A stretch of DNA of 64,000 nucleotides from Buttiauxella warmboldiae. GTDB taxonomy: Bacteria; Pseudomonadota; Gammaproteobacteria; Enterobacterales; Enterobacteriaceae. Numbering within the stretch: the stretch's first letter is position 1; the number at the start of each line of letters is the position of its first letter. Under the pieces are notes generated by a model that was not told where the DNA came from, made no database searches, and worked only from the letters and a program-made list of their open reading frames with translations. Positions 23,252 through 48,725 of this stretch are shown one piece after another. The stretch spans positions 1 to 64,000 of the forward strand of contig NZ_RPOH01000019.1 in NCBI RefSeq assembly GCF_003818135.1. Direction: 5' to 3'. The position numbers were made by a program, and so were the translations under genes.

Positions 23252-23917
23252 TCAACGATAGACTACAGGAACAACATCCATGAGCCTCTCGGCATCAACG
23301 CGCAGCGGGTGATCTTTCACTGATGAACCATAGACATACGGTTGATAAATATCAGAAATATTCTTTGAGCTATAATACTCCCATATTGAGAAACACGCTT
23401 CATAGCGGTCATAATAATCCATGCCAGGCGCCCTAACATGAAAATCCTCAGCAGGGTCTGGAGCAGCGTATTCAACTGTTTTATCACATACAATAGGTAC
23501 CGGTAAGATAGCAATTCCACCAGGCTTTAGTATTCGGTGTATTTCTGAAATTGCTTTCATATCATCCTGAATATGTTCTAAAACATGTGAAGCAAAAATA
23601 AAGTCAAACTGCTGATCAGCAAATGGCAAATCCTGAATGTCAACCTTAAAGTCCACCCCTTCCATCTCTATATCAGCCGTTTTGTATTCCCCGAAAATAT
23701 TGGAGAACCATGTCCGAAATGCGGACTCTGGAGCAAAATGCAGTGCTTTCATTTCAGAAGTTTTTTTATCTGCCAGAACGTGTTGTAAAATCATAAATTG
23801 TAATCGGTGCCTTTCCAGACTAGAACACCGAGGACAAAGCGCATACTGGCGATTACGGAATGTTAGAAATGAACCTTTAAAACTGCACAATGGGCAGTGA
23901 TACTGATTAATACTCAT
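23252..23917 (-). CDS. class I SAM-dependent methyltransferase with N-terminal zinc ribbon
   Basis: This 221-residue product has two CxxC pairs at the N-terminus (YHCPLCSFKG and YALCPRCSSLERHR), a likely zinc ribbon. A Methyltransf_11-type domain follows. The late motifs are clear (FDFIFASHVLEHIQDDM; EIHRILKPGGIAILPVP), while the glycine-rich motif I is replaced by ALHFAPESAF, a pattern seen in this subgroup. It is the last gene of the minus-strand island downstream of fliJ. The substrate is probably a sugar or an amino acid on flagellin; that is inferred from position. Confidence 0.75.
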   Translation of the reverse strand: MSINQYHCPLCSFKGSFLTFRNRQYALCPRCSSLERHRLQFMILQHVLADKKTSEMKALHFAPESAFRTWFSNIFGEYKTADIEMEGVDFKVDIQDLPFADQQFDFIFASHVLEHIQDDMKAISEIHRILKPGGIAILPVPIVCDKTVEYAAPDPAEDFHVRAPGMDYYDRYEACFSIWEYYSSKNISDIYQPYVYGSSVKDHPLRVDAERLMDVVPVVYR

Positions 23918-24134
23918 GAATATTCACTCTCCGTTCTTATAATCATTAATATTAAACATTTCATAATATAAAATTTATCATTTACACAGTTATGTTTAAG
24001 ATCGAAAAAAATTAAATCAATATCAACAAAGCAACATTTATCATCAAAAGATGCAAACAATAAAATTAAGAATTAATTTTCATTCAGCAACTGGACATAT
24101 AATCATGATTTCGACTCCGTACTGAATACTTTTT

Positions 24135-24803
24135 CTATGAAATTTTTCTGATGGCAAAACTTTGATTTTCGATTGTCTCTGCTGTTATGAAAATCAATTC
24201 CCAGCCAAAAGTAACGCAAAACTGATGAACGGCTTCGATGACACCGTAACGATACCATTTTATAAAATTACCCATAGTGTAATCATGTCCAGAAATTATC
24301 CCCCCCACTTTCAGTTTTGGAGCATACAAGCAAAGTTCCCGAATGGTAGTTTCATAAGAATGGTCAGTGTCAATATAAATCCAGTCTAGAGATTGATCGG
24401 CAAAATCGCTGGCCATCTCAATGGATAGACCCCGTTTTATTTCCACACAGCCTGAGTCAAGTTGCTCTCTGAATTTATCGGTAACCTGGTTAAAAAGACC
24501 ATCATGATAACGTTGGGTATGCCATGCATCGACCAGATAAAGTTTACTCGGCGTACAAATACGAAGTATTTTATCGCTAAACGCTCCCGAATCGACACCT
24601 ATTTCGGCAACGACTGCATTTTTAGGCATATTTTCAAGCAACGTTTCACGATCTAACAGAAGCTGGCAATTTGCAATATTGCTCTGCTCTAGCTTTATTT
24701 TTGGCATCAATTTCTCATATTGCTCTTTTTGCTTATGAGCCATTTCCATATACTGTTCAATAATGGAATTAATTAATCGCTGGTTGTCTATGGTCAAAGT
24801 CAT
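24135..24803 (-). CDS. class I SAM-dependent methyltransferase (Methyltransf_24-like)
   Basis: A 222-residue protein. Motif I is AEIGVDSGAFSDKIL, followed by LYLVDAW and WIYIDTDHSYETTIREL, with a later GGIISGHDY. This set is typical of Methyltransf_24/TylF-like sugar O-methyltransferases, which bind a metal through His/Asp residues. The gene stands apart from its neighbours by 138-217 bases of AT-rich DNA. A role in methylating a flagellin glycan is inferred from the island context. Confidence 0.75.
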   Translation of the reverse strand: MTLTIDNQRLINSIIEQYMEMAHKQKEQYEKLMPKIKLEQSNIANCQLLLDRETLLENMPKNAVVAEIGVDSGAFSDKILRICTPSKLYLVDAWHTQRYHDGLFNQVTDKFREQLDSGCVEIKRGLSIEMASDFADQSLDWIYIDTDHSYETTIRELCLYAPKLKVGGIISGHDYTMGNFIKWYRYGVIEAVHQFCVTFGWELIFITAETIENQSFAIRKIS

Positions 24804-24942
24804 TATTTCCTATTTAGAAATCAAGAATACATAATGGATAGTAACTGGCTTCATTGAAAACTGATATTTATCAATGAAAACTGCATGCTAAATAAACTCC
24901 AGAGCTAGGCAGGGTTAGTTTTTTAATTACCATTTTATCTGC

Positions 24943-25581
24943 CTATTCATGCATCCGACTAAAAATATAAAAATCTGCAAATGATGTATTACTTTGATCA
25001 TTAATGTCAAAGGGATACTTGTTAGGGATTAGATTATGAAAACCCCACTTATCGGCCATATTGCTGATTATCCAATCAGTAAATTTACGGTGACGAACAT
25101 GTTTAACATGTCCTCCGAGCAACAGGTTCAGTTGTTCGTCGTTGGAACTGTAAATAATAACAAATCGTTTTGCTGCACAGAATAATGTTTCCATATATCT
25201 TTCGAAGACATTTTCTTCAATAAGATGATAAAGAACATCAAGTGAAAGAGTTAATTCAGCTTGTTGTCCATTCCACTGATTGACCGAATAGAAGCTTTTT
25301 GTCGAATCGCTAGCGAATCGGTTGTTACACCGCTGCAAAGCATGTTCGGAAACGTCAAAACCTGTATAACAAGGATAGCGAGAGAGCGACAATTGGTTAC
25401 CATCACCACAGCCAAATTCCATTACTGATTGAATATTCTCTTCAGCAACAAAATGATTAATTATTTCTGCTTTAAAATCAGCAAGGCAACCGTATGAACC
25501 TGCACCTGAGTTTCCTTGTAACCGATAACGATCGTCCCAATACTGTGCCGAGTGTTCAAAAGTTAATGTAGCATTTGTCAT
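24943..25581 (-). CDS. class I SAM-dependent methyltransferase
   Basis: A 212-residue methyltransferase with motif I VMEFGCGDGNQLSLSRY, an acidic residue in YTGFDVSEHA, and LTLSLDVLYHLIEENVFERY, in line with methylases acting on sugars or small molecules. It is 16 bases downstream of the GT4-GT2 gene in the same orientation, so the two are probably co-transcribed and may act on the same glycan. Confidence 0.75.
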   Translation of the reverse strand: MTNATLTFEHSAQYWDDRYRLQGNSGAGSYGCLADFKAEIINHFVAEENIQSVMEFGCGDGNQLSLSRYPCYTGFDVSEHALQRCNNRFASDSTKSFYSVNQWNGQQAELTLSLDVLYHLIEENVFERYMETLFCAAKRFVIIYSSNDEQLNLLLGGHVKHVRHRKFTDWIISNMADKWGFHNLIPNKYPFDINDQSNTSFADFYIFSRMHE

Positions 25582-25597
25582 TGCTTATTCCAATAAT

Positions 25598-27874
25598 TTA
25601 AAAGGGGATATGGCGGAAAGATTCCGCGATTTGAACACCATGAAGAATCGTGTGTTTTAGCTCAGAAATCAGTGTCGGGCTGTTATGGATATTGGGTTGT
25701 AGCGCGAATACGCGGTGATAAAGATTCGGTAACTTTTCGCCCAAATAATGTTTAATACGTTGAGAATCAAAGGATTGCATAAACAAAACCGGGAGGCTTG
25801 TGAGTGGCAGTTCTTTATCCGTAACAACTAAGATATTAAATTTTTTATCCTCCTGAATACCCAACAGCTGAATATGATCAAGCAAAGTATCAAGCGGTGT
25901 ATTAATCGCATCCAGAATAATAGTCACATTATCTACCCCAGTTTCAGCATAAAGCATCTTCCGACGCTCCTGAATAAAACTATCTATTTCTTTCCATGCT
26001 TTCCCTGGGAATAATGCTTCCAGGCGGTAACGTTTCAGGATATTTTCAAAGATGCGATATTCATATGTCGTATCTGTCGATTTACCCATACCAGTAAGAT
26101 TACCGTCGTGCAGGCGATAAGAGATATTACAATGAGCGGTAAAAGCCACGCTGGCACGCCCCACAACACGAGACCAGAATTCATAGTCATGGGCTCGTAA
26201 ATATGTGGTGTCATAGCCTCCCACATCGCCATAAAGTGAACGAAGAACGCAACTCCCAGGGTTAGTAATAAAGTTGCCGTTTGGCAATTGTGATAGCCAG
26301 TTCGCCGGCGCGTAATTATAAAGGGAGTAATACTTTTTCTCGCCAACAAGCGATTCCATTGCACACGAAATAACATCTACTCGTGACCAGCGTTGTAAGA
26401 GTGTGCGGTAGTGAGAAAGTGCATTTTCATGAAGAATATCGTCACTGTCTAACCAAACCAGATATTCCCCTTTGGCTTCGGCTATACAACGGTTACGTGT
26501 GTCCGGGGCATTGGTATGCGGTTTAGCAACAATACGTAATCGAGGATCATTAATCTTAGCCAGTAAGTCCAAACTGGCATCCGAAGAACCATCGTCCACA
26601 ACTACGACTTCAAAATTGTGGTCACGCTGATTCAGCGCTGAGCTGACAGCCGAAAGAACATATCGCTCTCTGTTATAGCAGGGGATAACAATTGAAAATA
26701 ACGGCGATAGCGTCGTTACCGGTTGCCAGATTTTAAGATATTCATCAGGCAATTCTTGTTGGCGTAACAGTGTCTGGGCCTCTTGCGCATAGTTTTTTGG
26801 AGCCTGGTTGCCCTCGCTGATATGCGTGACCGCTTCATCAATCGATGTGAACAGATAGTTCGCGGGTAAATATTCACTCAGGCCACCGGGCGCGTGGAAT
26901 GCGACTGGTTTTAACCCAGCCAGCATAGCCTCGAATATCCCCATACCCTGAGATTCATTATAACTTACTGACAACAAAAACGACTTGTCTGAATACCATG
27001 CTGCCATCTCTGACGCCGCAAGATTGCCACAAATGACGATATTGTGCTTTAGGCCATAAATATCAATGAGTTGACAAAAACTGTCGTACAGACACTGATC
27101 TTCAATCCGTCCGGCAATAAAAAGCTTATAACGTGGGTCTTTCTTGGCGAGTGTTTGCAAAATAGGTAGAAGCATCACCAGGTTTTTTTGCGGCGCAAAA
27201 CGGGCCACACAGGCGATGTAATATGGATTACGTCTTTTTGATATATGTGTAACAGGCTGATGACCTGTCAGATTGGCGAGTACAGTCACTTTAAGATATT
27301 GGGGTAATTTAGAACCCAACAGCGATATAAAGCGTTTCTTCATTGCCTGACTAACTAAAATAACTTCGTCGACGTTTTCCCAATTTATTTGCGCAATCGC
27401 ATCACCATAAAGTTCATATCTATGAATTCGGCAAACAATTCGGCAATATTTAGGTAGTTGACTGGCAGCGATGATTGCCGAGTCACCCCACTCAAACCAT
27501 GCGACATCACAATGGCGCAGCGCATTAAGCAACGCTTGCTGAGTAAGATTGGCACTAGAGAGTTCACTGACGGAATGCCCTTGTTCACGCATAAGCCGCA
27601 TCACTGGCTGCATAAAATGGAAATTATCATTGGTAGCATTAACAACAATGCGTTGTTTACCTTCACCTAATGCAACGAAATGATAAGTACTGGGCTGATC
27701 GGTTTGCCCGATACAAGCATAACCCTTTTGATTCAGGTGCCATGAAACTATGGAAAATTTGTCTAAATTTGCACCTTCGAGTCGCAGTGGTGCTCTAATT
27801 TTCACACTTTCATCGACGAGGGCGAGTAAGGACTCTATCGGCATATCAGCCGCAATAACGCTTTGTAAACTCAT
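25598..27874 (-). CDS. two-domain glycosyltransferase (GT4-type plus GT2-type)
   Basis: This 758-residue protein fuses two sugar transferases. Residues about 70-355 form a GT-B, GT4-like unit (YYIACVARFAPQKNLVMLLP; ESQGMGIFEAMLAGLKPVAF). Residues about 392-600 form a GT-A, GT2 unit starting FSIVIPCYNRERYVLSAVSS with a metal-binding DSDD near 476. The last 130 residues have no family I recognise. Such proteins build short glycans. Being inside the flagellar cluster, it probably glycosylates LafA or extends its glycan, by inference. Confidence 0.8.
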   Translation of the reverse strand: MSLQSVIAADMPIESLLALVDESVKIRAPLRLEGANLDKFSIVSWHLNQKGYACIGQTDQPSTYHFVALGEGKQRIVVNATNDNFHFMQPVMRLMREQGHSVSELSSANLTQQALLNALRHCDVAWFEWGDSAIIAASQLPKYCRIVCRIHRYELYGDAIAQINWENVDEVILVSQAMKKRFISLLGSKLPQYLKVTVLANLTGHQPVTHISKRRNPYYIACVARFAPQKNLVMLLPILQTLAKKDPRYKLFIAGRIEDQCLYDSFCQLIDIYGLKHNIVICGNLAASEMAAWYSDKSFLLSVSYNESQGMGIFEAMLAGLKPVAFHAPGGLSEYLPANYLFTSIDEAVTHISEGNQAPKNYAQEAQTLLRQQELPDEYLKIWQPVTTLSPLFSIVIPCYNRERYVLSAVSSALNQRDHNFEVVVVDDGSSDASLDLLAKINDPRLRIVAKPHTNAPDTRNRCIAEAKGEYLVWLDSDDILHENALSHYRTLLQRWSRVDVISCAMESLVGEKKYYSLYNYAPANWLSQLPNGNFITNPGSCVLRSLYGDVGGYDTTYLRAHDYEFWSRVVGRASVAFTAHCNISYRLHDGNLTGMGKSTDTTYEYRIFENILKRYRLEALFPGKAWKEIDSFIQERRKMLYAETGVDNVTIILDAINTPLDTLLDHIQLLGIQEDKKFNILVVTDKELPLTSLPVLFMQSFDSQRIKHYLGEKLPNLYHRVFALQPNIHNSPTLISELKHTILHGVQIAESFRHIPF

Positions 27875-28536
27875 TTATCAGACCACATTTTAATTTTCTA
27901 AGAGGTATTGAGTAAACCGCAGAAAGCTAGCGGATATGAGACATACCTATTACCGGCGACACAGAGAGAAAAAAACTTAAACCTTTTTTTCTCTTTTTCT
28001 TTTGTTGTCAAAAAAATAGATGAGTATACGCTGAGACAACAAAACCTATAATTATTACAACATATTATCTTTATAAAAACTCTAATGACATTTTCATGCA
28101 ATTCAATATGAGAAGCTAATTTTATACGTCACGCACATATTCTAAGAGAAAATTAATTCCCATCAAACAATTTAATCGCAACACCTTCATAGCTTATTAC
28201 CTCCATATAAAAAGGTATAAAACACCATCCCAATAGGATTTTATTCCAGACAATAGCGCCGCAGGAAAAAAGCAGCATCGCTTCATAATTTTCGACTTTC
28301 TTATTTGTGCTCAGGAATAAGAACATCCATTTTTTCCCGGATTTATCGCTGATTTCCACTTACTGTCTACCATAGTTTACTCTCAAAAACTGCCTTTTAT
28401 TCAGTAACTAAAAATTCCTTTTGGGATAGTTTCTCACATGCTATTCAGCATAAATGATGATTACCGAAAAATATTAGACCCACCAATTACTTACCATTAT
28501 TAACTGAATATTATAAATATCACCTTATATATAGGG
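27875..28536. other. AT-rich region with little coding content
   Basis: About 660 bases between two island genes. It includes a weak 68-codon ORF (28153-28359) and otherwise no convincing gene. The composition is much more AT-rich than the flagellar genes, suggesting decayed foreign DNA. Confidence 0.6.
28153..28359 (-). CDS. doubtful small ORF or gene remnant (68 aa)
   Basis: GTG-initiated ORF with hydrophobic stretches (LLFSCGAIVWNKILLGWCFI). An ATG just upstream in another frame (28372) reads MVDSKWKSAINPG before hitting a stop, so a frameshift between the two may have broken a longer gene. No family recognised and no good ribosome-binding site. Confidence 0.2.
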   Translation of the reverse strand: MEISDKSGKKWMFLFLSTNKKVENYEAMLLFSCGAIVWNKILLGWCFIPFYMEVISYEGVAIKLFDGN

Positions 28537-29382
28537 TTAGAACATTTTATATTCTTGTATTTTTCGCTGCTCAGTATACATTGTGAGATACTCAGAAACT
28601 TTTTCCATATGTATGTTATTATATTTATTGAGGCAAATGAACGTAGCGGTAGCATTAAGTACCTCTACTGGAAAATATCCGAGTGGTGAAAGTAAATTCA
28701 TTATATCAGTATAATCTTTATGCGTGATACATTCAAAAGCCAAGGCTGGCTTATGTTTTTTTAGCGTATTAACACTTCCTTGCAAAACATCATATTCCAT
28801 ACCTTCAACATCTATTTTAATCAATCCTATAGAACGCTCACTATTTTTTATCTGAGAAATATCATCAAGTACCATAATCGAAACTTTTATGGTACTGTTA
28901 TTTTTATTAGCATCACGGCTAAACGTCCCATTATTATCACCAATACTTTTAGACAATAAAACAGAACCTTCACATTTTCCCAGTGCAGTTTCCAATAAAG
29001 TTACTTTTTCTGAAACATTATTCAAATCTGCATTTATAGAAAAGCAAAGTGCATTTTTCCGCACAGGCTCAAAAGCGATAACATCCCAATTTTTTACCAA
29101 GCTAAAGTATATACTATGATTTCCAATATTAGCTCCAACATCTATAACCAAATGATCATCTGCATTGAAAAAGCTAAAAAAATTCAAAAAGTCACACTCA
29201 TAAAATTTTTTATCAGCAATTATGCGTGATGGGAGATAGTCATCATCAAGATGAAATAGTTTTACCTTTTTGTAATTGTGAGTAAATTCCAAAATGTTAA
29301 ATACATCATTGCTAAATTCATCTTTTATAACTTTAATTTTATCATCAATTGCAAGATTTTTTAAATTGGGGTCAACGTTCAT
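28537..29382 (-). CDS. FkbM-family SAM-dependent methyltransferase
   Basis: The start ATG 29382 (MNVDPNLKNLAIDD) has AAGG nine bases upstream; the longer frame has no such site. The 281-residue product has motif I HLVIDVGANIGNHSIYFS, followed by DVIAFEPVRKNALCFSIN and IGLIKIDVEGMEYDVLQGS, the FkbM signature. FkbM enzymes O-methylate sugars and often occur in glycosylation islands. The gene is markedly AT-rich with rare-codon-like usage, a sign of acquisition. Confidence 0.85.
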   Translation of the reverse strand: MNVDPNLKNLAIDDKIKVIKDEFSNDVFNILEFTHNYKKVKLFHLDDDYLPSRIIADKKFYECDFLNFFSFFNADDHLVIDVGANIGNHSIYFSLVKNWDVIAFEPVRKNALCFSINADLNNVSEKVTLLETALGKCEGSVLLSKSIGDNNGTFSRDANKNNSTIKVSIMVLDDISQIKNSERSIGLIKIDVEGMEYDVLQGSVNTLKKHKPALAFECITHKDYTDIMNLLSPLGYFPVEVLNATATFICLNKYNNIHMEKVSEYLTMYTEQRKIQEYKMF

Positions 29383-29627
29383 GTAACATAGCCTTATTAA
29401 TAAATGGGAAATGTATAATAAAGACAAACAACAAAAATCATTCATAATCTGATGCTGCTTAAAGCGATCCAATATTTAACAAAAATTTTAATTGGATACA
29501 TTAGCATATTGTGTTTATCTGATGCTTACCTAACAAAAAATTACATTCGCATAACATTAATTATTCTGATAGCAGAGATCATCCTACGCTATTATTCAAT
29601 AGCGGGCATATTGTGCCCGCATGATAA

Positions 29628-30575
29628 TCATAATAAAGCGAAACCACTGAGTAAAAGATTTTCAGAATCCTGATTTATATTAACTTCAATAGTTTTCACT
29701 CTCTCATTCCATTCAAAATAAGCACTAATTAAAGCAACAACTTGCTCCTTTTCAAAACATGCTATTTCTTCACAGTAAATAGCAATAATCATTTTTAAGC
29801 GAAAAATATGTTCTGCCAAATAAAAAAAAGAGGCCCCATAGCTCTCATTAGAATCAGGAAATGTAGTATTGTATATCATATAAATCAATAGGTTATTGAA
29901 AATCTCTTGATTTGATTTAAAAAATTCATCACCGTGTTCCCACGCAACCTGGATCTGATGTAGTCGTTCAGTGAGACGTTCATCATTTAAGATCGTTAGC
30001 TCACTTAGCTTCAACATAAATGCCATTTTATGTTCAAAAGGAAGATTAATATCTAATTTTATCTTACCAATTTCCTTTAGCGCTTGTAATCTAATTTGAA
30101 TGATTTCTGGCAATTGATTCATCTGCTGTTGAATTTGGTTATTATCTGCCAATGAATATAAATTGCGAGAAAGTTCATCAAGCATACTTATATCGGAAGT
30201 AATTTTACTATTGTCTTTATGTACTTTACTCAACAAAACACCGATTAGATAAATCTTATGTTCTAATGAGATTCCGGGATAGATAGCAAAATTTATACAC
30301 AACTGATTAATCATCTCTAAACTAGTATTTAATAATAAAGATGACTCACTGGAAATTTTACTTTCATGTAAAATAAATGATTGGGGGTTTAGCAAAATTT
30401 CTTTTGCTGCCTTTAAACATGATATAGAAAGACTTTGCCGATGCTGATTTTTCCAACGCAAATTTACAATTGGGAAATTTTCCTTTCCACTTTTGCAAGC
30501 TTGACATCTGCATTTCTCATGATCGGCGTTAAACCTTTTAACATATTCAGGCTGATAATTATCAATAAGCTCCAT
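29628..30575 (-). CDS. FliB-like flagellin lysine-methylase homologue, cysteine-poor and shortened
   Basis: I assign this 315-residue protein to the FliB family from two matches recalled from memory: the N-terminus YQPEYVKRFNADHEKC, and QSLSISCLKAAKEILLNPQ, which resembles the FliB segment around SLxCPExxRxxLLDP. FliB N-methylates surface lysines of flagellin and has about 400 residues with an N-terminal cysteine cluster. Here only Cys22, 24, 27 and 53 remain near the N-terminus, and about 50 residues that hold the other cysteines are missing between them. RBS AGGAGAG is good and the gene lies 32 bases after a glycosyltransferase gene. It may be inactive or have a changed role. Confidence 0.55.
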   Translation of the reverse strand: MELIDNYQPEYVKRFNADHEKCRCQACKSGKENFPIVNLRWKNQHRQSLSISCLKAAKEILLNPQSFILHESKISSESSLLLNTSLEMINQLCINFAIYPGISLEHKIYLIGVLLSKVHKDNSKITSDISMLDELSRNLYSLADNNQIQQQMNQLPEIIQIRLQALKEIGKIKLDINLPFEHKMAFMLKLSELTILNDERLTERLHQIQVAWEHGDEFFKSNQEIFNNLLIYMIYNTTFPDSNESYGASFFYLAEHIFRLKMIIAIYCEEIACFEKEQVVALISAYFEWNERVKTIEVNINQDSENLLLSGFALL

Positions 30576-30607
30576 TTATATACTCTCCTATATAACGTGT
30601 AAATTAG

Positions 30608-31999
30608 TTATGTTTTTTCTGAAAAAGTATGGGTTATGTCCGCACCGACAACGTCGGTACAATTCCCCTGATGTGACAAATACGCAAAGCTTGGATAGAA
30701 ACCTAACCACAGATCTTCTTTCATTTTTATCTGCCAGGCGGCATTTAAGGATGCCTTTTCGTCTTTAGCCATGGTGTAGAGTTCTATCAGAGCCTGGTAA
30801 TAGCTTGAATTAACGGCATACGCACAAGCACAATCAGCCCCCGTAATACGAGCGACGCCCGGCAGGGATTGCATTGGTCGTAATGAATCATGCTGCGCGC
30901 CCAGCAGTATGACTTTCCAGTCAATTGATTCAATATTATTGAGTAAGCCATTTACATTTTTAACGAAATTTTCTTTTTTCACAAATTGAATAGCGCCATC
31001 AATAATAAGAATATTTTTCCACTCTTGTTCTTTAGCCCATTTCAATACCACGAGATGAGTCTCTAACTCATCCGGGCTCTTTTGCTGGAAAATTAACTGT
31101 TGCGGTTTGATACCAAAATCTACCAGACTATGCCTGATCGTTTCGGTATTCGTGTCACCGCTATTTTGCAGAACAATTATCTGCTCAAATACCTGCCAGT
31201 TAACCGGTTGTGTAACAGGAGCATGGCTCAAACGACGGTAATGCGTGAGCAAATTTGCATCAGTAACAAAATCCTCAAGCGTTAAATCTACGGCTTCACA
31301 GGTTCCTAAAACAAAGTCTTTATCGTAAGTATTGGCACTATGAGATACGCAAAGAATCGCGTTCCGTGGCTCCACTTGCAGCACAGGTGCAGTAAAACCA
31401 TTCAGGAACGGCCCTTCCTCGGCCAGCATATCTGCGTCCCGGTAACGATGTTTTTTCAGGTAATTGCGGTGGTAACCAAAAGTGCCGTTTAAAGCATGAT
31501 TCTTGCCTAAAGAGGTGGTGCGATAAATTTTATCGAGGTGGCTATACCATATATAAATTTGATCACAGCCAGAAAACACCGCTTTATGGTGCATCATTTG
31601 TTCGACCTGGTAGCTAACCTTATTCGCAGGATAATAATCGTCATCATCGAAACAAATTATATACTCACCCGTGGCCAGTTCGTTGAGCATGTTTCTTTTT
31701 TCACCCAACTGCAAACGACGCGGACTATGAATATAACGCACATTGTCGCTATTGTTCATCGTCAGCATATTGACCAAGTCTTCATTACTTTCAGCAGAGT
31801 CATCCAGAATGATCAGCTCACGACGATCCGCTGGATAGTCCTGGTAATAAAATTGATAAATCAAATATGGCAAAAAATCTCTCCGGTTGTAGCTTGGAGA
31901 AATAACGCTCACAAATGGTTTCCGTTCCTGAGCCTGCTTTGATAGCTGTTTATTTAGTAGCGACCCCATCAAATTAGGTCTATTTTTTGTCGACTTCAT
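30608..31999 (-). CDS. fused glycosyltransferase (GT2-type plus GT25-like domain)
   Basis: This 463-residue protein starts 3 bases after the fliJ stop. Residues 28-250 are a GT-A, GT2-type unit (FVSVISPSYNRRDFLPYLIY; metal-binding FDDDDYY near 117-123). Residues about 270-430 resemble GT25/LPS glycosyltransferases (NILIIDGAIQFVKKENFVKN; DWKVILLGAQHD; ACAYAVNSSYYQALIELYTM), but the usual EDD is replaced by DGA, so this half may be non-catalytic. The junction with fliJ means it belongs to the lafK-fliEFGHIJ transcript, tying glycosylation to basal-body expression. Confidence 0.75.
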   Translation of the reverse strand: MKSTKNRPNLMGSLLNKQLSKQAQERKPFVSVISPSYNRRDFLPYLIYQFYYQDYPADRRELIILDDSAESNEDLVNMLTMNNSDNVRYIHSPRRLQLGEKRNMLNELATGEYIICFDDDDYYPANKVSYQVEQMMHHKAVFSGCDQIYIWYSHLDKIYRTTSLGKNHALNGTFGYHRNYLKKHRYRDADMLAEEGPFLNGFTAPVLQVEPRNAILCVSHSANTYDKDFVLGTCEAVDLTLEDFVTDANLLTHYRRLSHAPVTQPVNWQVFEQIIVLQNSGDTNTETIRHSLVDFGIKPQQLIFQQKSPDELETHLVVLKWAKEQEWKNILIIDGAIQFVKKENFVKNVNGLLNNIESIDWKVILLGAQHDSLRPMQSLPGVARITGADCACAYAVNSSYYQALIELYTMAKDEKASLNAAWQIKMKEDLWLGFYPSFAYLSHQGNCTDVVGADITHTFSEKT

Positions 32000-32002
32000 G
32001 AG

Positions 32003-32437
32003 TTATCTCTGACGCTGGCGACGCATCCAGCTCTGCGTAGACATTGCGTCCGTGGTTTTTTGCTCTTTACGCGTTGCCTCATCGGCAAACTTATCCCGCC
32101 GCTGCTCAAGCACCAGTTGATAACCGCGCTCACGGCGCGCCTCATGCAGTAAGTTCTGCTGGATCTCCTGCATTTTCATATCCGCCAGCGCCTGCTCCTG
32201 CTTTTGCCAGTTGATAATGCGCTGAATATTTTTCTTGTACTGCGCCTGATTGGTCATCATTGCGGCATGGGTATTTCCGGGGCTTGCAGGCGTGACCGCC
32301 AGATTATTCAGCGCCTGGATATTGTTTTCATAGCGCTGGCACATCTGCTTCTGGGAAGATAATTTGCCGCTCAGATCTTTCACCGTGCGGGCACGAATTT
32401 GTACCAGCTGTTCGAGCGTGCTGATGGTTTTTGGCAT
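32003..32437 (-). CDS. fliJ: flagellar export chaperone FliJ
   Basis: FliJ (144 aa) is a coiled-coil component of the export ATPase complex. It is almost entirely helical and rich in Gln, Arg and Lys (LEQRRDKFADEATRKEQ). It follows fliI by 23 bases, the standard order. Length fits E. coli FliJ (147). Confidence 0.9.
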   Translation of the reverse strand: MPKTISTLEQLVQIRARTVKDLSGKLSSQKQMCQRYENNIQALNNLAVTPASPGNTHAAMMTNQAQYKKNIQRIINWQKQEQALADMKMQEIQQNLLHEARRERGYQLVLEQRRDKFADEATRKEQKTTDAMSTQSWMRRQRQR

Positions 32438-45543: not shown

Positions 45544-46302
45544 TTATTTCAGAATATAAGCCTGCAAAAACTCACCTTTTTTCACCGGACGGGAAAAGAG
45601 GAACCCCTGGGCCAGCATGACGTTATGTTTTAACAGCATGGAAGTCTGCGCCATCGTTTCCACCCCCTCAGCAATGATTGAGATGCCAATGTTATGCGCC
45701 TCGGCAATAAGCTCCCGGGTTTTCTCGCTATGCCCATTTTTCAGGCATTCGCGATCTAATTTGATAAAGTCACAGGCCGCCTGCGCCATCTTATTTTGTA
45801 CATCATCAAGGGTGCCAACATCATCCCAGGCGAAAGTAAAACCCGCATCCTGTAACTGCTGAATGTTCTTTTCACCCGTTTCAGCCAGCGCTTCTGCAGA
45901 ACGTGTGATCTCAAAAGTCACGGAGGTTGCTGGAATTTGATACTGGCTTTGCAGCTGCAAAATACTCTCAGAAAAATCCTCATCATTAAGCTGATGGGTA
46001 GCCAAATTGATATTAAAGAAAAAATCAGGCTTTATCGGCAGGATATCGCGCTGCATAAACTCAAAAGCTTTACCGACGATGTATTTTCCGACATTAATGA
46101 TGCCGTCATTTTCTTCCAGCTGTTGTAAGAACTGTGCGGGCTGAATAATATTGTGGCGATGGACGCCACGCAACAACACCTCGGCACCGACACACTGGAA
46201 GCTCGACAAATTAAAAATCGGCTGCACAAAAAAATCTACCACGCTTGAGTAATCACGATGGGTTATTTTTCTTAAAATGGTACTGGAACTAATGTCGATC
46301 AT
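45544..46302 (-). CDS. EAL-domain protein with degenerate catalytic loop
   Basis: ATG 46302 has AGGTAAG upstream, giving 252 residues, the size of a lone EAL domain. The first motif is GAEVLLRG (EVL form of EAL), and AEGVET and AQGFLFSRP are kept. The metal-site loop DDFGTG reads [10 protein letters not shown], and the EITE motif reads EITRS. Such EAL-only proteins either cut cyclic-di-GMP or, like YdiV, act as binding or anti-activator proteins on flagellar regulators. It is third in the minus-strand run after the diguanylate cyclase, 58 bases behind its paralogue. Confidence 0.85.
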
Positions 46303-46360
46303 TCGCTTACCTATATATGATGCCGGGGTAGAGGCAGGTATCCAGAGATGAATAATTACG

Positions 46361-47122
46361 CTAACTAATATAGCGCTGGGCAAAAGTCTGGAGCGCCACC
46401 GGAGGGGAGTAATAATATCCCTGGCAGGTCGTTACGCCTTGCTCAAGTAACCACTCCCGTTGCCAGGGATATTCCACCCCTTCGGCAACCAGCTGTAATT
46501 TTTTACGTTGGCAGCGTGCGATAATCTCTTGCGTCACGCTCAGGCACTCTTGATTAAGCAGGCTACGATCCAGCTTGATGACATCGCTGCAAAACTGCTG
46601 GCTGTTTTTCTTCAAATCATCCAGATTACGTATATCATCCCACGCGATCACAAAACCCTGCTGCTGTAACCAGCGGGCATTCTCCTGCCCGCAATCGCTC
46701 AGGGCAACCTCAGTTTCAGTGATTTCAATTGTAATTTTATGCCGTGGATAACCCGACCGTTCAGTAATGGCTTTGATCTTCTCAACCACCGCACGATCGT
46801 TTATCTCAATCGGTGAAAAATTGCTGCTCAGGGTGAAATCAGGCTGCTGATGCAGCTGGTTCTCAATGGCGAAATGGATCGCCATTTGCAGCACAAAAAC
46901 CCCCACTTTACGGATATCACTGTTCTGCTCAAGCAGACCGATAAAGCGGTCGGGGAAGATTAGCTTATTTTCCACCATTCCCCGAACCAGCGCCTCTGCG
47001 CCCTGACAGCGCCCGTCAACCATATTAATAATGGGCTGTAAATAGACGGTCAGAGCTTGCGCTGGCTTGCCCTCAGCAATATTAGCCAGTAGGGTTCTAA
47101 TATCCTCATTCTCAACCGTCAT
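46361..47122 (-). CDS. EAL-domain protein, partly degenerate (paralogue of the neighbour)
   Basis: A 253-residue EAL-only protein with RBS AAGGAAAG. EAL is intact ([10 protein letters not shown]), as are EITETE and VAEGVE, but the DDFGTG loop reads [10 protein letters not shown], as in the neighbour. The two are clearly related, so probably a tandem duplication. With loop 6 changed, enzyme activity is uncertain. It lies 67 bases downstream of the GGDEF gene. Confidence 0.85.
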
Positions 47123-47189
47123 GTTACTTTCCTTGCTTGATAAAGACTAAATATGAAGCGGACCCTTTCTGCATCATTCACCTCATTAT

Positions 47190-48725
47190 TTAATCAGTTG
47201 CTGTGCGAATGGCATTTTTCCCTGCGCGCTTCGCCTCATATAATGCTTTGTCTGCTTTAGTGATAATCTCCTGTGAGGTTTCACCCATTTTCCAGCGGGC
47301 GATGCCACAGCTAAAGGAGACTTTTAATGTTGTTTCGCGCCACTGGCGCTGGCAGATGGTGGCACGCCAGGTTTCGAGTAAATCGAAATAGAGGTGATAT
47401 TCACCGCCCGGGAACAACACCACCAGCTCTTCACCGCCAAAACGATAAATATCATATTCGGGTTCAATAATTGCTTTACCGGCTTTACTGACATATTTGA
47501 GCACCGAGTCGCCAACCGCGTGACCGAAAGTATCATTAATCTTTTTAAAATCATCGAGATCCAGTATCGCCAGATAGAAAGGAGTTTCGCTGTTAATTAA
47601 CTCAGCCATGCGGTCATCAAACTTGCGCCGGGTGCCGATCCCAGTCAACGCATCTTCACCAGAGATACGGCGCACTTCTTTAAGCTCTAACTGGCTACTT
47701 TTAATATTTTTATAAATTTTTTCCAAATCTTGTGACTGGCCATCATAGTTAATTCCATGCACGCCCATATACAGACGGCCAATGATCTCTCTGATGTAGA
47801 CACGACACAAGCAGATTAAGACAATATAAATTATCAAGCATAATGAAATAATAAAAATTAACGTCTGTGGCGCTTTGTTAATAAAATCATCATACTTTCC
47901 CCCATTAACAATAGTAAACGCTACCCAATCTGGATTCGAAAATGAATGATAAAAGATATAACTATTAGATTCTTCATCATAAAACTCCCCTTCAATGTTG
48001 ATAGCATTATTAACCCATTTTAATGGGACCGTATTGCGGAAAATTTTATTAATATTGTCGCTCATGATAATAGTGCCATCTTTCGCGGCGACAAGAAATT
48101 TACCGTCGAAAGGCACTACCACGTTTTTCAGCGTTGAGCTCATCGCATCCATATCAAGATCGAAAGCTATGTTGCCATATTTTTGCAATTCTTCATCAAA
48201 AAGATTCATGCTAACTGTAATCGCCCGGCCTTCTAAGTCGGTTGGCAAAGCAAGAACATCTGAGTACGGTTCAGAATAATAAATCCCCTTCTGATGTTTA
48301 ATCGTCGGGTACCAGGGGCGCTGGAGTGGGAAATAGTCATCTTTTTTAATGCCGGGATAAGTACGATAGTTTCCGTCAATATCTGAAACTATCGCCGCAT
48401 CAAAAAAGGATAATGTATTAACTATTGAGGCAATAATTGAATGAGGAGTACCGTGCTCTTCATTAATAAAAATCCTGGCTCCTTCGTGTGTCATCCGGCT
48501 ATTGAGAATCTGGAAAACAAGACCAATCTCTTCTAACTGCCGGTTAACGCTTTCCATAGCGGTATTATGGGTAAAGCGCATCAGATTGGTATCAAATGTT
48601 TCAATATTCCCCTTACGGATATGGTCAAACGACCAGATCGAGACCAGCATAAAAGGAATTAACATCACTACAAATAGCACGGTTAGCAAACGATTCACGG
48701 TGCTGGACTTCTTATTAACTTCCAT
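47190..48725 (-). CDS. membrane diguanylate cyclase (Cache-like sensor, GGDEF domain)
   Basis: A 511-residue protein that makes cyclic-di-GMP. It has helices at about 15-35 and 280-305, and between them a periplasmic dCache-type sensor (ISDIDGNYRTYPGIKKDDYF, GRAITVSMNLFDEE). The GGDEF domain starts EDALTGIGTRRKFDDRMAEL, with active-site GGEEL in YDIYRFGGEELVVLFPGG. The inhibitory I-site RxxD is absent (the equivalent is PEYD), so product feedback may be weak. It heads the GGDEF-EAL-EAL run. Confidence 0.92.
   Translation of the reverse strand: MEVNKKSSTVNRLLTVLFVVMLIPFMLVSIWSFDHIRKGNIETFDTNLMRFTHNTAMESVNRQLEEIGLVFQILNSRMTHEGARIFINEEHGTPHSIIASIVNTLSFFDAAIVSDIDGNYRTYPGIKKDDYFPLQRPWYPTIKHQKGIYYSEPYSDVLALPTDLEGRAITVSMNLFDEELQKYGNIAFDLDMDAMSSTLKNVVVPFDGKFLVAAKDGTIIMSDNINKIFRNTVPLKWVNNAINIEGEFYDEESNSYIFYHSFSNPDWVAFTIVNGGKYDDFINKAPQTLIFIISLCLIIYIVLICLCRVYIREIIGRLYMGVHGINYDGQSQDLEKIYKNIKSSQLELKEVRRISGEDALTGIGTRRKFDDRMAELINSETPFYLAILDLDDFKKINDTFGHAVGDSVLKYVSKAGKAIIEPEYDIYRFGGEELVVLFPGGEYHLYFDLLETWRATICQRQWRETTLKVSFSCGIARWKMGETSQEIITKADKALYEAKRAGKNAIRTATD

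What the first reader, a model, noticed from the sequence alone, without database searches (positions are those of the whole stretch)
23252..31999. Flagellin-modification island inside the flagellar cluster, joined to fliJ
Seven genes (two fused glycosyltransferases, four methyltransferases including FkbM, one FliB-like protein) lie on the fliJ side of the cluster. The first begins 3 bases after fliJ, so at least that gene is on the basal-body transcript. Composition is AT-rich, pointing to lateral acquisition. The set predicts a methylated glycan and perhaps methyl-lysine on LafA.
Basis: partly seen in the sequence, partly recalled or inferred. Interest (0 to 1): 0.75.

Follow-up and report, generated by a model that had tools for sequence, protein, structure and literature searches.

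The report
Flagellin-sugar genes with a defunct methylase
A gene island in a bacterium's second flagellum locus probably attaches sugars to the flagellar filament, and its supposed methylating enzyme appears to have lost its known active centre and to work instead as the companion of a sugar-attaching enzyme.

Summary
The seven-gene AT-rich island is real and fills the published variable region VR1 (fliJ to flgN) of the Flag-2 locus; such islands with glycosyltransferases, methyltransferases and FliB-like LafV are in print (PMC6993521). The inference "methyl-lysine on LafA" fails a test: LafV lacks the CX4CX3CC [4Fe-4S] motif that FliB needs, as do 44 of 44 intact short LafVs examined, while 37 of 37 full-length FliBs examined keep it. 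Short LafVs form one clade under purifying selection. In 63 Flag-2 genomes, 45 have both short LafV and a homologue of the first island gene, GT2a; 2 have GT2a alone; 0 have intact LafV alone; 16 have neither. Where both lie in the fetched stretch they are neighbours on one strand (43 of 43). The central region of LafA holds the tripeptide ASG in 36 of 40 loci with GT2a and 1 of 15 without; FliD, FlgK and FlgL show no such bias. Best reading: GT2a O-glycosylates LafA, plausibly at ASG serines; LafV is a FliB-derived, probably non-methylating helper; the other five genes are variable cargo.

The parts
32003..32437 (-). fliJ (Flag-2), upstream neighbour; its stop is 3 bases before the GT2a start
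   Evidence: PF02050, 43.9 bits; gap
30608..31999 (-). GT2a: GT2-family glycosyltransferase with an unassigned C-terminal half; core gene of the module; D118-D121 invariant in 21 aligned homologues
   Evidence: PF00535, 67 bits; alignment A3; above 380 bits in 47 of 392 family genomes
29628..30575 (-). short LafV: FliB homologue of 315 aa without the CX4CX3CC [4Fe-4S] motif; has C22, C24, C27 (CxCxxC) and C53; core gene of the module
   Evidence: NF038110 from profile position 98, 68 bits under cut-off 85; model pLDDT 91.2
28537..29472 (-). FkbM-family methyltransferase (in-frame ATG at 29382 is the likelier start); variable cargo
   Evidence: PF05050, 73 bits; TIGR01444, 101 bits
28227..28302 (.). 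76-base piece similar to IS5-family transposase genes inside the island
   Evidence: 85-89% in the 15 rows listed of 198 E. coli records
25598..27874 (-). GT4-GT2 fused glycosyltransferase; variable cargo shared with two other VR1 loci
   Evidence: PF00534 and PF00535; L038 and L094; G072 only among 196 other relatives
24943..25581 (-). methyltransferase-like protein (Mtf12/25 type); variable cargo, also in L094
   Evidence: Pfam hits below cut-off; TIGR03587, 30.6 bits against cut-off 112; L094
24135..24803 (-). Methyltransf_24 family protein; variable cargo
   Evidence: PF13578, 54 bits
23252..23917 (-). Methyltransf_11 family protein; variable cargo
   Evidence: PF08241, 57 bits
22326..22766 (+). 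flgN, far border of VR1
   Evidence: PF05130, 47.6 bits
8496..9356 (-). lafA, Flag-2 flagellin, 286 aa, the predicted acceptor
   Evidence: PF00669 and PF00700
8931..8939 (-). codons of A140-S141-G142 in LafA, candidate acceptor sequon
   Evidence: codons checked; ASG association

Best explanation
The island is a flagellin O-glycosylation locus of the Flag-2 flagellum. Its conserved core is a two-gene module, GT2a plus short LafV; the remaining genes are exchangeable glycan-tailoring cargo. GT2a transfers the first sugar to LafA in the cytoplasm, probably to serines in A-S-G tripeptides of its central region. LafV descends from the [4Fe-4S] flagellin lysine methyltransferase FliB, has lost the known catalytic centre, and keeps the body of the fold. 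It most likely binds LafA (a step inherited from FliB) and presents it to GT2a, and it does not methylate lysine by the FliB reaction. Shown by computation: absence of the motif, grouping in one clade, purifying selection, adjacency and co-occurrence with GT2a, the ASG association, and its absence from FliD, FlgK and FlgL. Inferred: that LafA is modified at all, that the ASG serine is the acceptor, and that LafV is the docking partner.
For: 1) CX4CX3CC in 37 of 37 full-length FliB proteins and 0 of 44 intact short LafVs that I fetched. Eight cysteines (C17, C22, C26, C27, C80, C89, C104, C126) are invariant in 31 full-length rows; no cysteine is invariant in 37 short rows. In Salmonella FliB the change of C17, C22, C26 and C27 to alanine abolished cluster and methylation (PMC8598068, passages). 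2) Short LafV is not decaying: one clade at 100/99 with subclades A (23) and B (21); NG86 dN/dS 0.057-0.238 in 14 of 14 pairs that I chose, two of them with dS above 1; model pLDDT 91.2, pTM 0.90. 3) Coupling to GT2a: of 63 Flag-2 genomes, both 45, GT2a alone 2, intact LafV alone 0, neither 16. Neighbours on one strand, gap -221 to 261 bases, in 43 of 43 intact LafV loci with a GT2a frame in the stretch, and in 54 of 56 Enterobacterales loci of a second, overlapping collection (of the other two, one ends at a contig edge). The pair survives a change of order: GT2a then LafV in 22 of 22 clade A loci, LafV then GT2a in 21 of 21 clade B loci; in L106 it lies between two lafA copies. Where GT2a is gone in G282 (L153), LafV is a 239-aa remnant. 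4) Acceptor: ASG in the LafA central region in 36 of 40 GT2a+ and 1 of 15 GT2a- loci, the largest difference of 1461 tripeptides, reached in 0 of 5000 label permutations. Per protein 1.78 (A) and 1.36 (B) against 0.26 and 0.21 in composition shuffles. No significant difference in FliD, FlgL, FlgK (p 0.73, 0.69, 0.15). Six phylogenetically independent GT+/GT- pairs: 5 agree, 1 tie, 0 against, one of them within the window's genus. 5) LafA central lysines per 100 residues: 5.0 (A), 1.6 (B), 6.5 (no module), against 8.1 in FliC beside full-length FliB (13 copies).
Against: Clade A keeps four cysteines without exception (C22, C24, C27, C53 in 23 of 23), which could be a remodelled metal site. Four of 40 GT2a+ loci lack central ASG and one of 15 GT2a- loci has it; other tripeptides also differ (GGT 31 against 1, YGG 28 against 1), as shared ancestry alone would give; the ancestry-aware test has six pairs only. 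No complex of LafV with LafA or GT2a was computed, and Foldseek found no solved relative at E <= 0.001 for either fold. The root of the FliB/LafV tree is a midpoint, so 'loss' is the likelier, not the proven, direction.
Confidence: 0.48

Rival explanations
1. LafV is still an enzyme: in clade A the cysteines C22, C24, C27 and C53 form a remodelled Fe-S or zinc site, and the protein methylates LafA lysines or the glycan.
For: All four cysteines in 23 of 23 clade A proteins; FliB ancestry; confident fold. I raised this rival from 0.15 to 0.18 after the count.
Against: Sister clade B (21 proteins) keeps the gene and the GT2a partnership without the CxCxxC motif; the segment carrying C80, C89 and C104 of FliB has no counterpart in the short rows; LafA of clade B has 0-4 central lysines per copy.
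Confidence: 0.18
2. The published reading (De Maayer 2020, shared by the first reader): LafV is an orthologue of FliB and LafA carries methyl-lysine besides a glycan.
For: Homology to NF038110; position in a flagellin-modification region.
Against: 0 of 44 short LafVs have the motif shown to be essential in FliB; lysines of LafA are not enriched where LafV is present.
Confidence: 0.08
3. LafV is a general Flag-2 chaperone or regulator (for example of LafA export) that sits beside GT2a for transcription only.
For: In clade B it lies between flgN, a chaperone gene, and GT2a on one strand; its dN/dS resembles that of flgN.
Against: 16 of 16 Flag-2 loci without GT2a lack intact LafV although they keep fliJ and flgN; the one clear remnant is at a GT2a-less locus (L153).
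Confidence: 0.17
4. The ASG association is a by-product of LafA ancestry or composition, not an acceptor site; GT2a acts elsewhere on LafA or on another substrate.
For: GT2a status is clustered on the tree; Ser and Thr are more frequent in LafA of GT2a+ loci; other tripeptides differ too, and 4 of 40 GT2a+ loci lack central ASG.
Against: Observed counts exceed composition shuffles six- to seven-fold; ASG sits in different contexts in different LafAs; 5 of 6 independent pairs agree and none disagrees.
Confidence: 0.3

Closest known systems
Flag-2 variable region 1 (VR1), De Maayer et al. 2020, PMC6993521
   Same: Same slot between lfiJ and lfgN; same gene kinds (GT2, GT4, FkbM, Mtf11, Mtf24, Mtf25, LafV); low GC.
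   Different: The paper counts LafV as a FliB orthologue and infers flagellin methylation. In what I saw (abstract, section 9, passages) it does not mention the missing Fe-S motif, a GT2a-LafV pairing or an ASG tripeptide; its supplement was not seen.
FliB, [4Fe-4S] flagellin lysine methyltransferase of Salmonella, PMC8598068 (passages)
   Same: Homologous from NF038110 position 98 on, with similar first residues; helical body kept.
   Different: CX4CX3CC and the segment with C80, C89, C104 absent; about 310 instead of about 400 residues; beside GT2a in VR1.
FlmG of Caulobacter, PMC7591256 (passages)
   Same: Works by a flagellin-binding part plus a glycosyltransferase part; the GT part alone did not bind flagellin or restore modification.
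   Different: There the binding part is a fused TPR domain and the GT is of the GT-B type; here the proposed binding part is a separate FliB-derived protein and the GT is of family GT2. Homology was not tested.
Flag-1 flagellin glycosylation and methylation islands, De Maayer and Cowan 2016, PMC4875605 (passages)
   Same: Cargo islands that modify enterobacterial flagellin.
   Different: There fliB islands and glycosylation islands are described as in general mutually exclusive, with two strains excepted; in Flag-2 the FliB-like gene is tied to a GT.

Membership tests
Flag-2 VR1 cargo island | Lies between Flag-2 fliJ and flgN | tested here: met
Flag-2 VR1 cargo island | GC below the flagellar genes | tested here: met
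Flag-2 VR1 cargo island | Optional: empty in some relatives | tested here: met
   L146 of the same genus, fliJ directly followed by flgN
FliB flagellin lysine methyltransferase | CX4CX3CC motif binding [4Fe-4S] | tested here: not met
   Absent from the window protein; 0 of 44 intact short LafVs have it
FliB flagellin lysine methyltransferase | NCBIfam NF038110 score above the cut-off | tested here: not met
   68.1 against 85 bits, from profile position 98. Four other short LafVs do pass it, at 92.5-94.5 bits from position 98
FliB flagellin lysine methyltransferase | SAM-dependent methylation of flagellin lysine | not testable with these tools
   Needs biochemistry
FliB flagellin lysine methyltransferase | Homology over the C-terminal body | tested here: met
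GT2 glycosyltransferase | Glycos_transf_2 domain with conserved acidic motif | tested here: met
   PF00535, 67 bits; D118-D121 invariant in 21 rows
Cytoplasmic flagellin O-glycosyltransferase | Sugar on flagellin Ser/Thr | not testable with these tools
   Only the ASG association supports it

The most novel reading that the evidence does not exclude
A branch of the [4Fe-4S] flagellin lysine methyltransferases turned into an acceptor-recognition subunit, without the Fe-S centre, of a two-component flagellin O-glycosyltransferase, and this system reads a short linear sequon, A-S-G, on the flagellin, although flagellin O-glycosylation has been described as having no sequence consensus (PMC7591256, passage).
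Probability: 0.33. Interest if true: 0.75.

Novelty: new variant of a known kind. Interest (0 to 1): 0.55.

Why it matters
LafV is counted as a FliB orthologue in 342 of 592 enterobacterial Flag-2 loci (PMC6993521). If those resemble the 44 examined here, the annotation misleads, and the Flag-2 filament should carry sugars rather than methyl-lysine. The pairing would be a concrete case of an Fe-S methyltransferase fold recruited as a partner of a glycosyltransferase. The ASG association offers a candidate sequon for flagellin O-glycosylation that one glycopeptide experiment can test, with a naturally module-free species of the same genus as control.

Tried and rejected
Considered and rejected: a wrong start codon as the cause of the short LafV (only 32 bases lie between the GT2a stop and the LafV start, and 44 intact homologues are short). 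Pseudogene (dN/dS). The epmB-side FliB homologues as the source of LafV (they group with the full-length FliBs at 100/99 on a midpoint-rooted tree). PF03692 as a finder: it gave two small proteins elsewhere in the own genome and not LafV. Promoter- and terminator-like sites in the island were near the shuffles (37 against 34.9, 8 against 7.2), so transcript ends were not judged. Foldseek against PDB gave nothing at E <= 0.001 for FliB or LafV. The PDB sequence search gave one match at E 0.096 for LafV, taken as chance. Megablast against E. coli genomes gave 198 records, all places at 80-90%; the 15 rows listed hold only the IS5 piece. Conserved S/T columns of LafA did not separate loci with and without GT2a cleanly.

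Rows dropped before counts. NF038110 matched 92 of 392 genomes; I counted 45 as short LafV and did not count fragments or broken copies (G061, G064, G114, G117, G463, parts of G263). The 37 full-length proteins are those fetched, from 35 loci (two of them of another family); the remaining full-length matches were not inspected for the motif. L098 (fragment in G064), L153 (remnant) and L099 (LafV in two frames) are left out of the tree and of the 44. L034 is a contig end, counted among the 44 but not among the 43. GT2a is itself broken or short in L088 and L110, which are among the 43. The 54 include L178 and L190, where LafV is in two frames; L220 and L221 (no GT2a) were dropped from 58 to give 56. 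In the 16 GT2a-less loci the short-LafV profile also gave a weak 15.6-bit match to a 91-aa frame between flgN and flgA in L147, not counted as LafV. ASG counts cover 40 of 47 GT2a+ genomes (G213, G235, G324, G351, G353, G399, G472 had no whole Flag-2 LafA) and 15 of 16 GT2a- genomes (not G079). L276 counts as lacking central ASG although a second lafA of that genome (L316) has it. Control proteins were read in fewer loci than LafA: FliD 27 and 15, FlgL and FlgK 21 and 14. FlgI gave 5 of 21 against 0 of 14 (p 0.069); FlgE, FlgF and FlgG had too few loci to use, and FlgG carries ASG in all 16 read, whatever the GT2a state. Of eight epmB-side FliB loci, five were inspected for neighbours.


Full report
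Observation. The seven ORFs, their minus strand, the 3-base gap after fliJ and the low GC are as described. The island fills the slot between Flag-2 fliJ and flgN. In another species of the same genus (G003, locus L146) that slot is empty: fliJ runs into flgN, with flanks 84% and 80% identical to the window. The nearest GT2a in the named collection is from Buttiauxella noackiae (89%), so the window is most likely Buttiauxella; no tool names the organism.

What is already known. De Maayer et al. 2020 (PMC6993521; abstract, section 9 and passages seen) describe this slot as VR1 of the flag-2 locus, with GT2, GT4, FkbM, Mtf11, Mtf24, Mtf25 and LafV genes, low GC, and an inferred role in flagellin glycosylation and methylation. 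The island as such is therefore a new member of a known kind.

The FliB-like protein fails the FliB test. NF038110 matches it only from position 98 and below its cut-off. In 392 family genomes the matches to that profile fall mostly into two kinds, from position 1 or from about 98 onwards, with some fragments; four of the short kind pass the cut-off. Contexts were fetched. CX4CX3CC is present in 37 of 37 full-length proteins fetched and absent from 44 of 44 intact short ones, searched over the whole frame. FliB with C17, C22, C26 and C27 changed to alanine loses its [4Fe-4S] cluster and its activity (PMC8598068, passages). Both models are confident (FliB L051 pLDDT 89.9; LafV 91.2) and share a start of strand and helix and a helical body; the segment between, with C80, C89 and C104, has no counterpart in the short rows. 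Short LafVs form one clade (100/99) with two subclades. All 23 members of A keep C22, C24, C27 and C53; none of the 21 members of B has CxCxxC. dN/dS lies at 0.057-0.238 in 14 pairs that I chose, seven of them from clade B, so even the form without the motif is maintained by selection.

The partner. Intact short LafVs lie beside a homologue of the window's GT2a on the same strand in 43 of 43 loci where a GT2a frame is in the stretch (the 44th, L034, is a contig edge), and in 54 of 56 GT2a loci of the named collection (the genomes overlap with the first set). Order follows the clade: GT2a then LafV in 22 of 22 A, LafV then GT2a in 21 of 21 B, so adjacency has survived a rearrangement. In clade B the GT is about 850 residues long; in three of four examined it has a C-terminal CDP-glycerol glycerophosphotransferase-like match, above cut-off in one. 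Among 63 Flag-2 genomes (62 by FliI, plus G235 with a broken fliI) the counts are 45 with both, 2 with GT2a alone, 0 with intact LafV alone, 16 with neither. The pair lies between two lafA genes in L106. In flag-1 loci, by contrast, fliB islands and glycosylation islands are described as in general mutually exclusive, with two strains excepted (PMC4875605, passages).

The acceptor. An open scan of tripeptides in the central region of LafA gave ASG as the strongest difference between loci with and without GT2a: 26 of 29 against 1 of 12 loci, and with more loci 36 of 40 against 1 of 15, out of 1461 tripeptides, with 0 of 5000 label permutations as large. GGT and YGG differ as well (31 and 28 of 40 against 1 of 15 each), so part of the signal is ancestry. 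FliD, FlgL and FlgK show no significant difference. In a tree of 42 genomes, six independent pairs give 5 in favour, 1 tie, 0 against. Within the genus, the two GT2a+ species have ASG and the GT2a- species has none. In the two GT2a+ genomes without LafV, LafA still has ASG, so ASG follows GT2a rather than LafV. Lysines in the same region are fewer in LafA with LafV (5.0 and 1.6 per 100) than without (6.5) or in FliC beside full-length FliB (8.1).

Mechanism proposed. GT2a O-glycosylates LafA before export, plausibly on ASG serines. LafV, a FliB derivative without the known catalytic centre, binds LafA and assists. The GT4-GT2 fusion and the four methyltransferases extend and methylate the glycan. 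A functional parallel is FlmG, where a TPR part binds flagellin and the GT part alone does not suffice (PMC7591256, passages). Not shown: any modification of LafA, any LafV contact, the order of sugars. The invariant cysteines of clade A leave a remodelled metal site open; after counting them I raised that rival from 0.15 to 0.18 and lowered the best explanation from 0.50 to 0.48.

In print or not. The listings of searches of the open PMC library showed no title or opening of an abstract on LafV lacking the Fe-S motif, on a LafV-GT pair, or on ASG as a flagellin sequon. I opened five papers in part (PMC6993521, PMC8598068, PMC7526173, PMC4875605, PMC7591256); the others were seen in listings only, and subscription papers are not covered.

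Verdict. An ordinary VR1 island in outline; its FliB-like gene is probably misread in the first-stage interpretation and in the published one. The GT2a-LafV module with an ASG-bearing flagellin is a new variant of flagellin modification worth a direct test.

Noticed in passing
L042:9562-10779 (also L043, L123, L140, L141): A full-length FliB homologue with CX4CXCXCC lies next to epmB and efp, on the strand of epmB, and in L042, L043 and L123 is followed by groEL-groES; no flagellar gene was seen nearby. A methyltransferase acting on a lysine of EF-P or GroEL is a possibility. EF-P and the radical-SAM domain were found by Pfam in L042 only; the names epmB, groEL and groES are from recall.
   Followed up: partly
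window 28227-28302: A 76-base piece similar to IS5-family transposase genes inside a 662-base stretch without a called gene in the island.
   Followed up: no
window 45544-48725: Two EAL-domain genes and one GGDEF-domain gene, c-di-GMP enzymes, directly beyond one end of the Flag-2 cluster.
   Followed up: no
L099, L178, L190: LafV is in two frames in an uncultured Buttiauxella (L099 and L178 come from contigs of equal length, probably one genome) and in Kluyvera YDC799, where GT2a is also short.
   Followed up: no
G000:C87, C63, C80, C99, C21: The own genome has further flagellin-domain genes outside the window: a 396-aa flagellin on C87 without ASG, and two equal-scoring partial frames on C63 and C80, perhaps contig-end copies.
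   Followed up: partly
L041:10258-12834, L044:10244-12793, L108:10479-13040: The clade B glycosyltransferase has a C-terminal CDP-glycerol glycerophosphotransferase-like match (PF04464, above cut-off only in L044), hinting at glycerol-phosphate in the flagellin glycan of those species.
   Followed up: no
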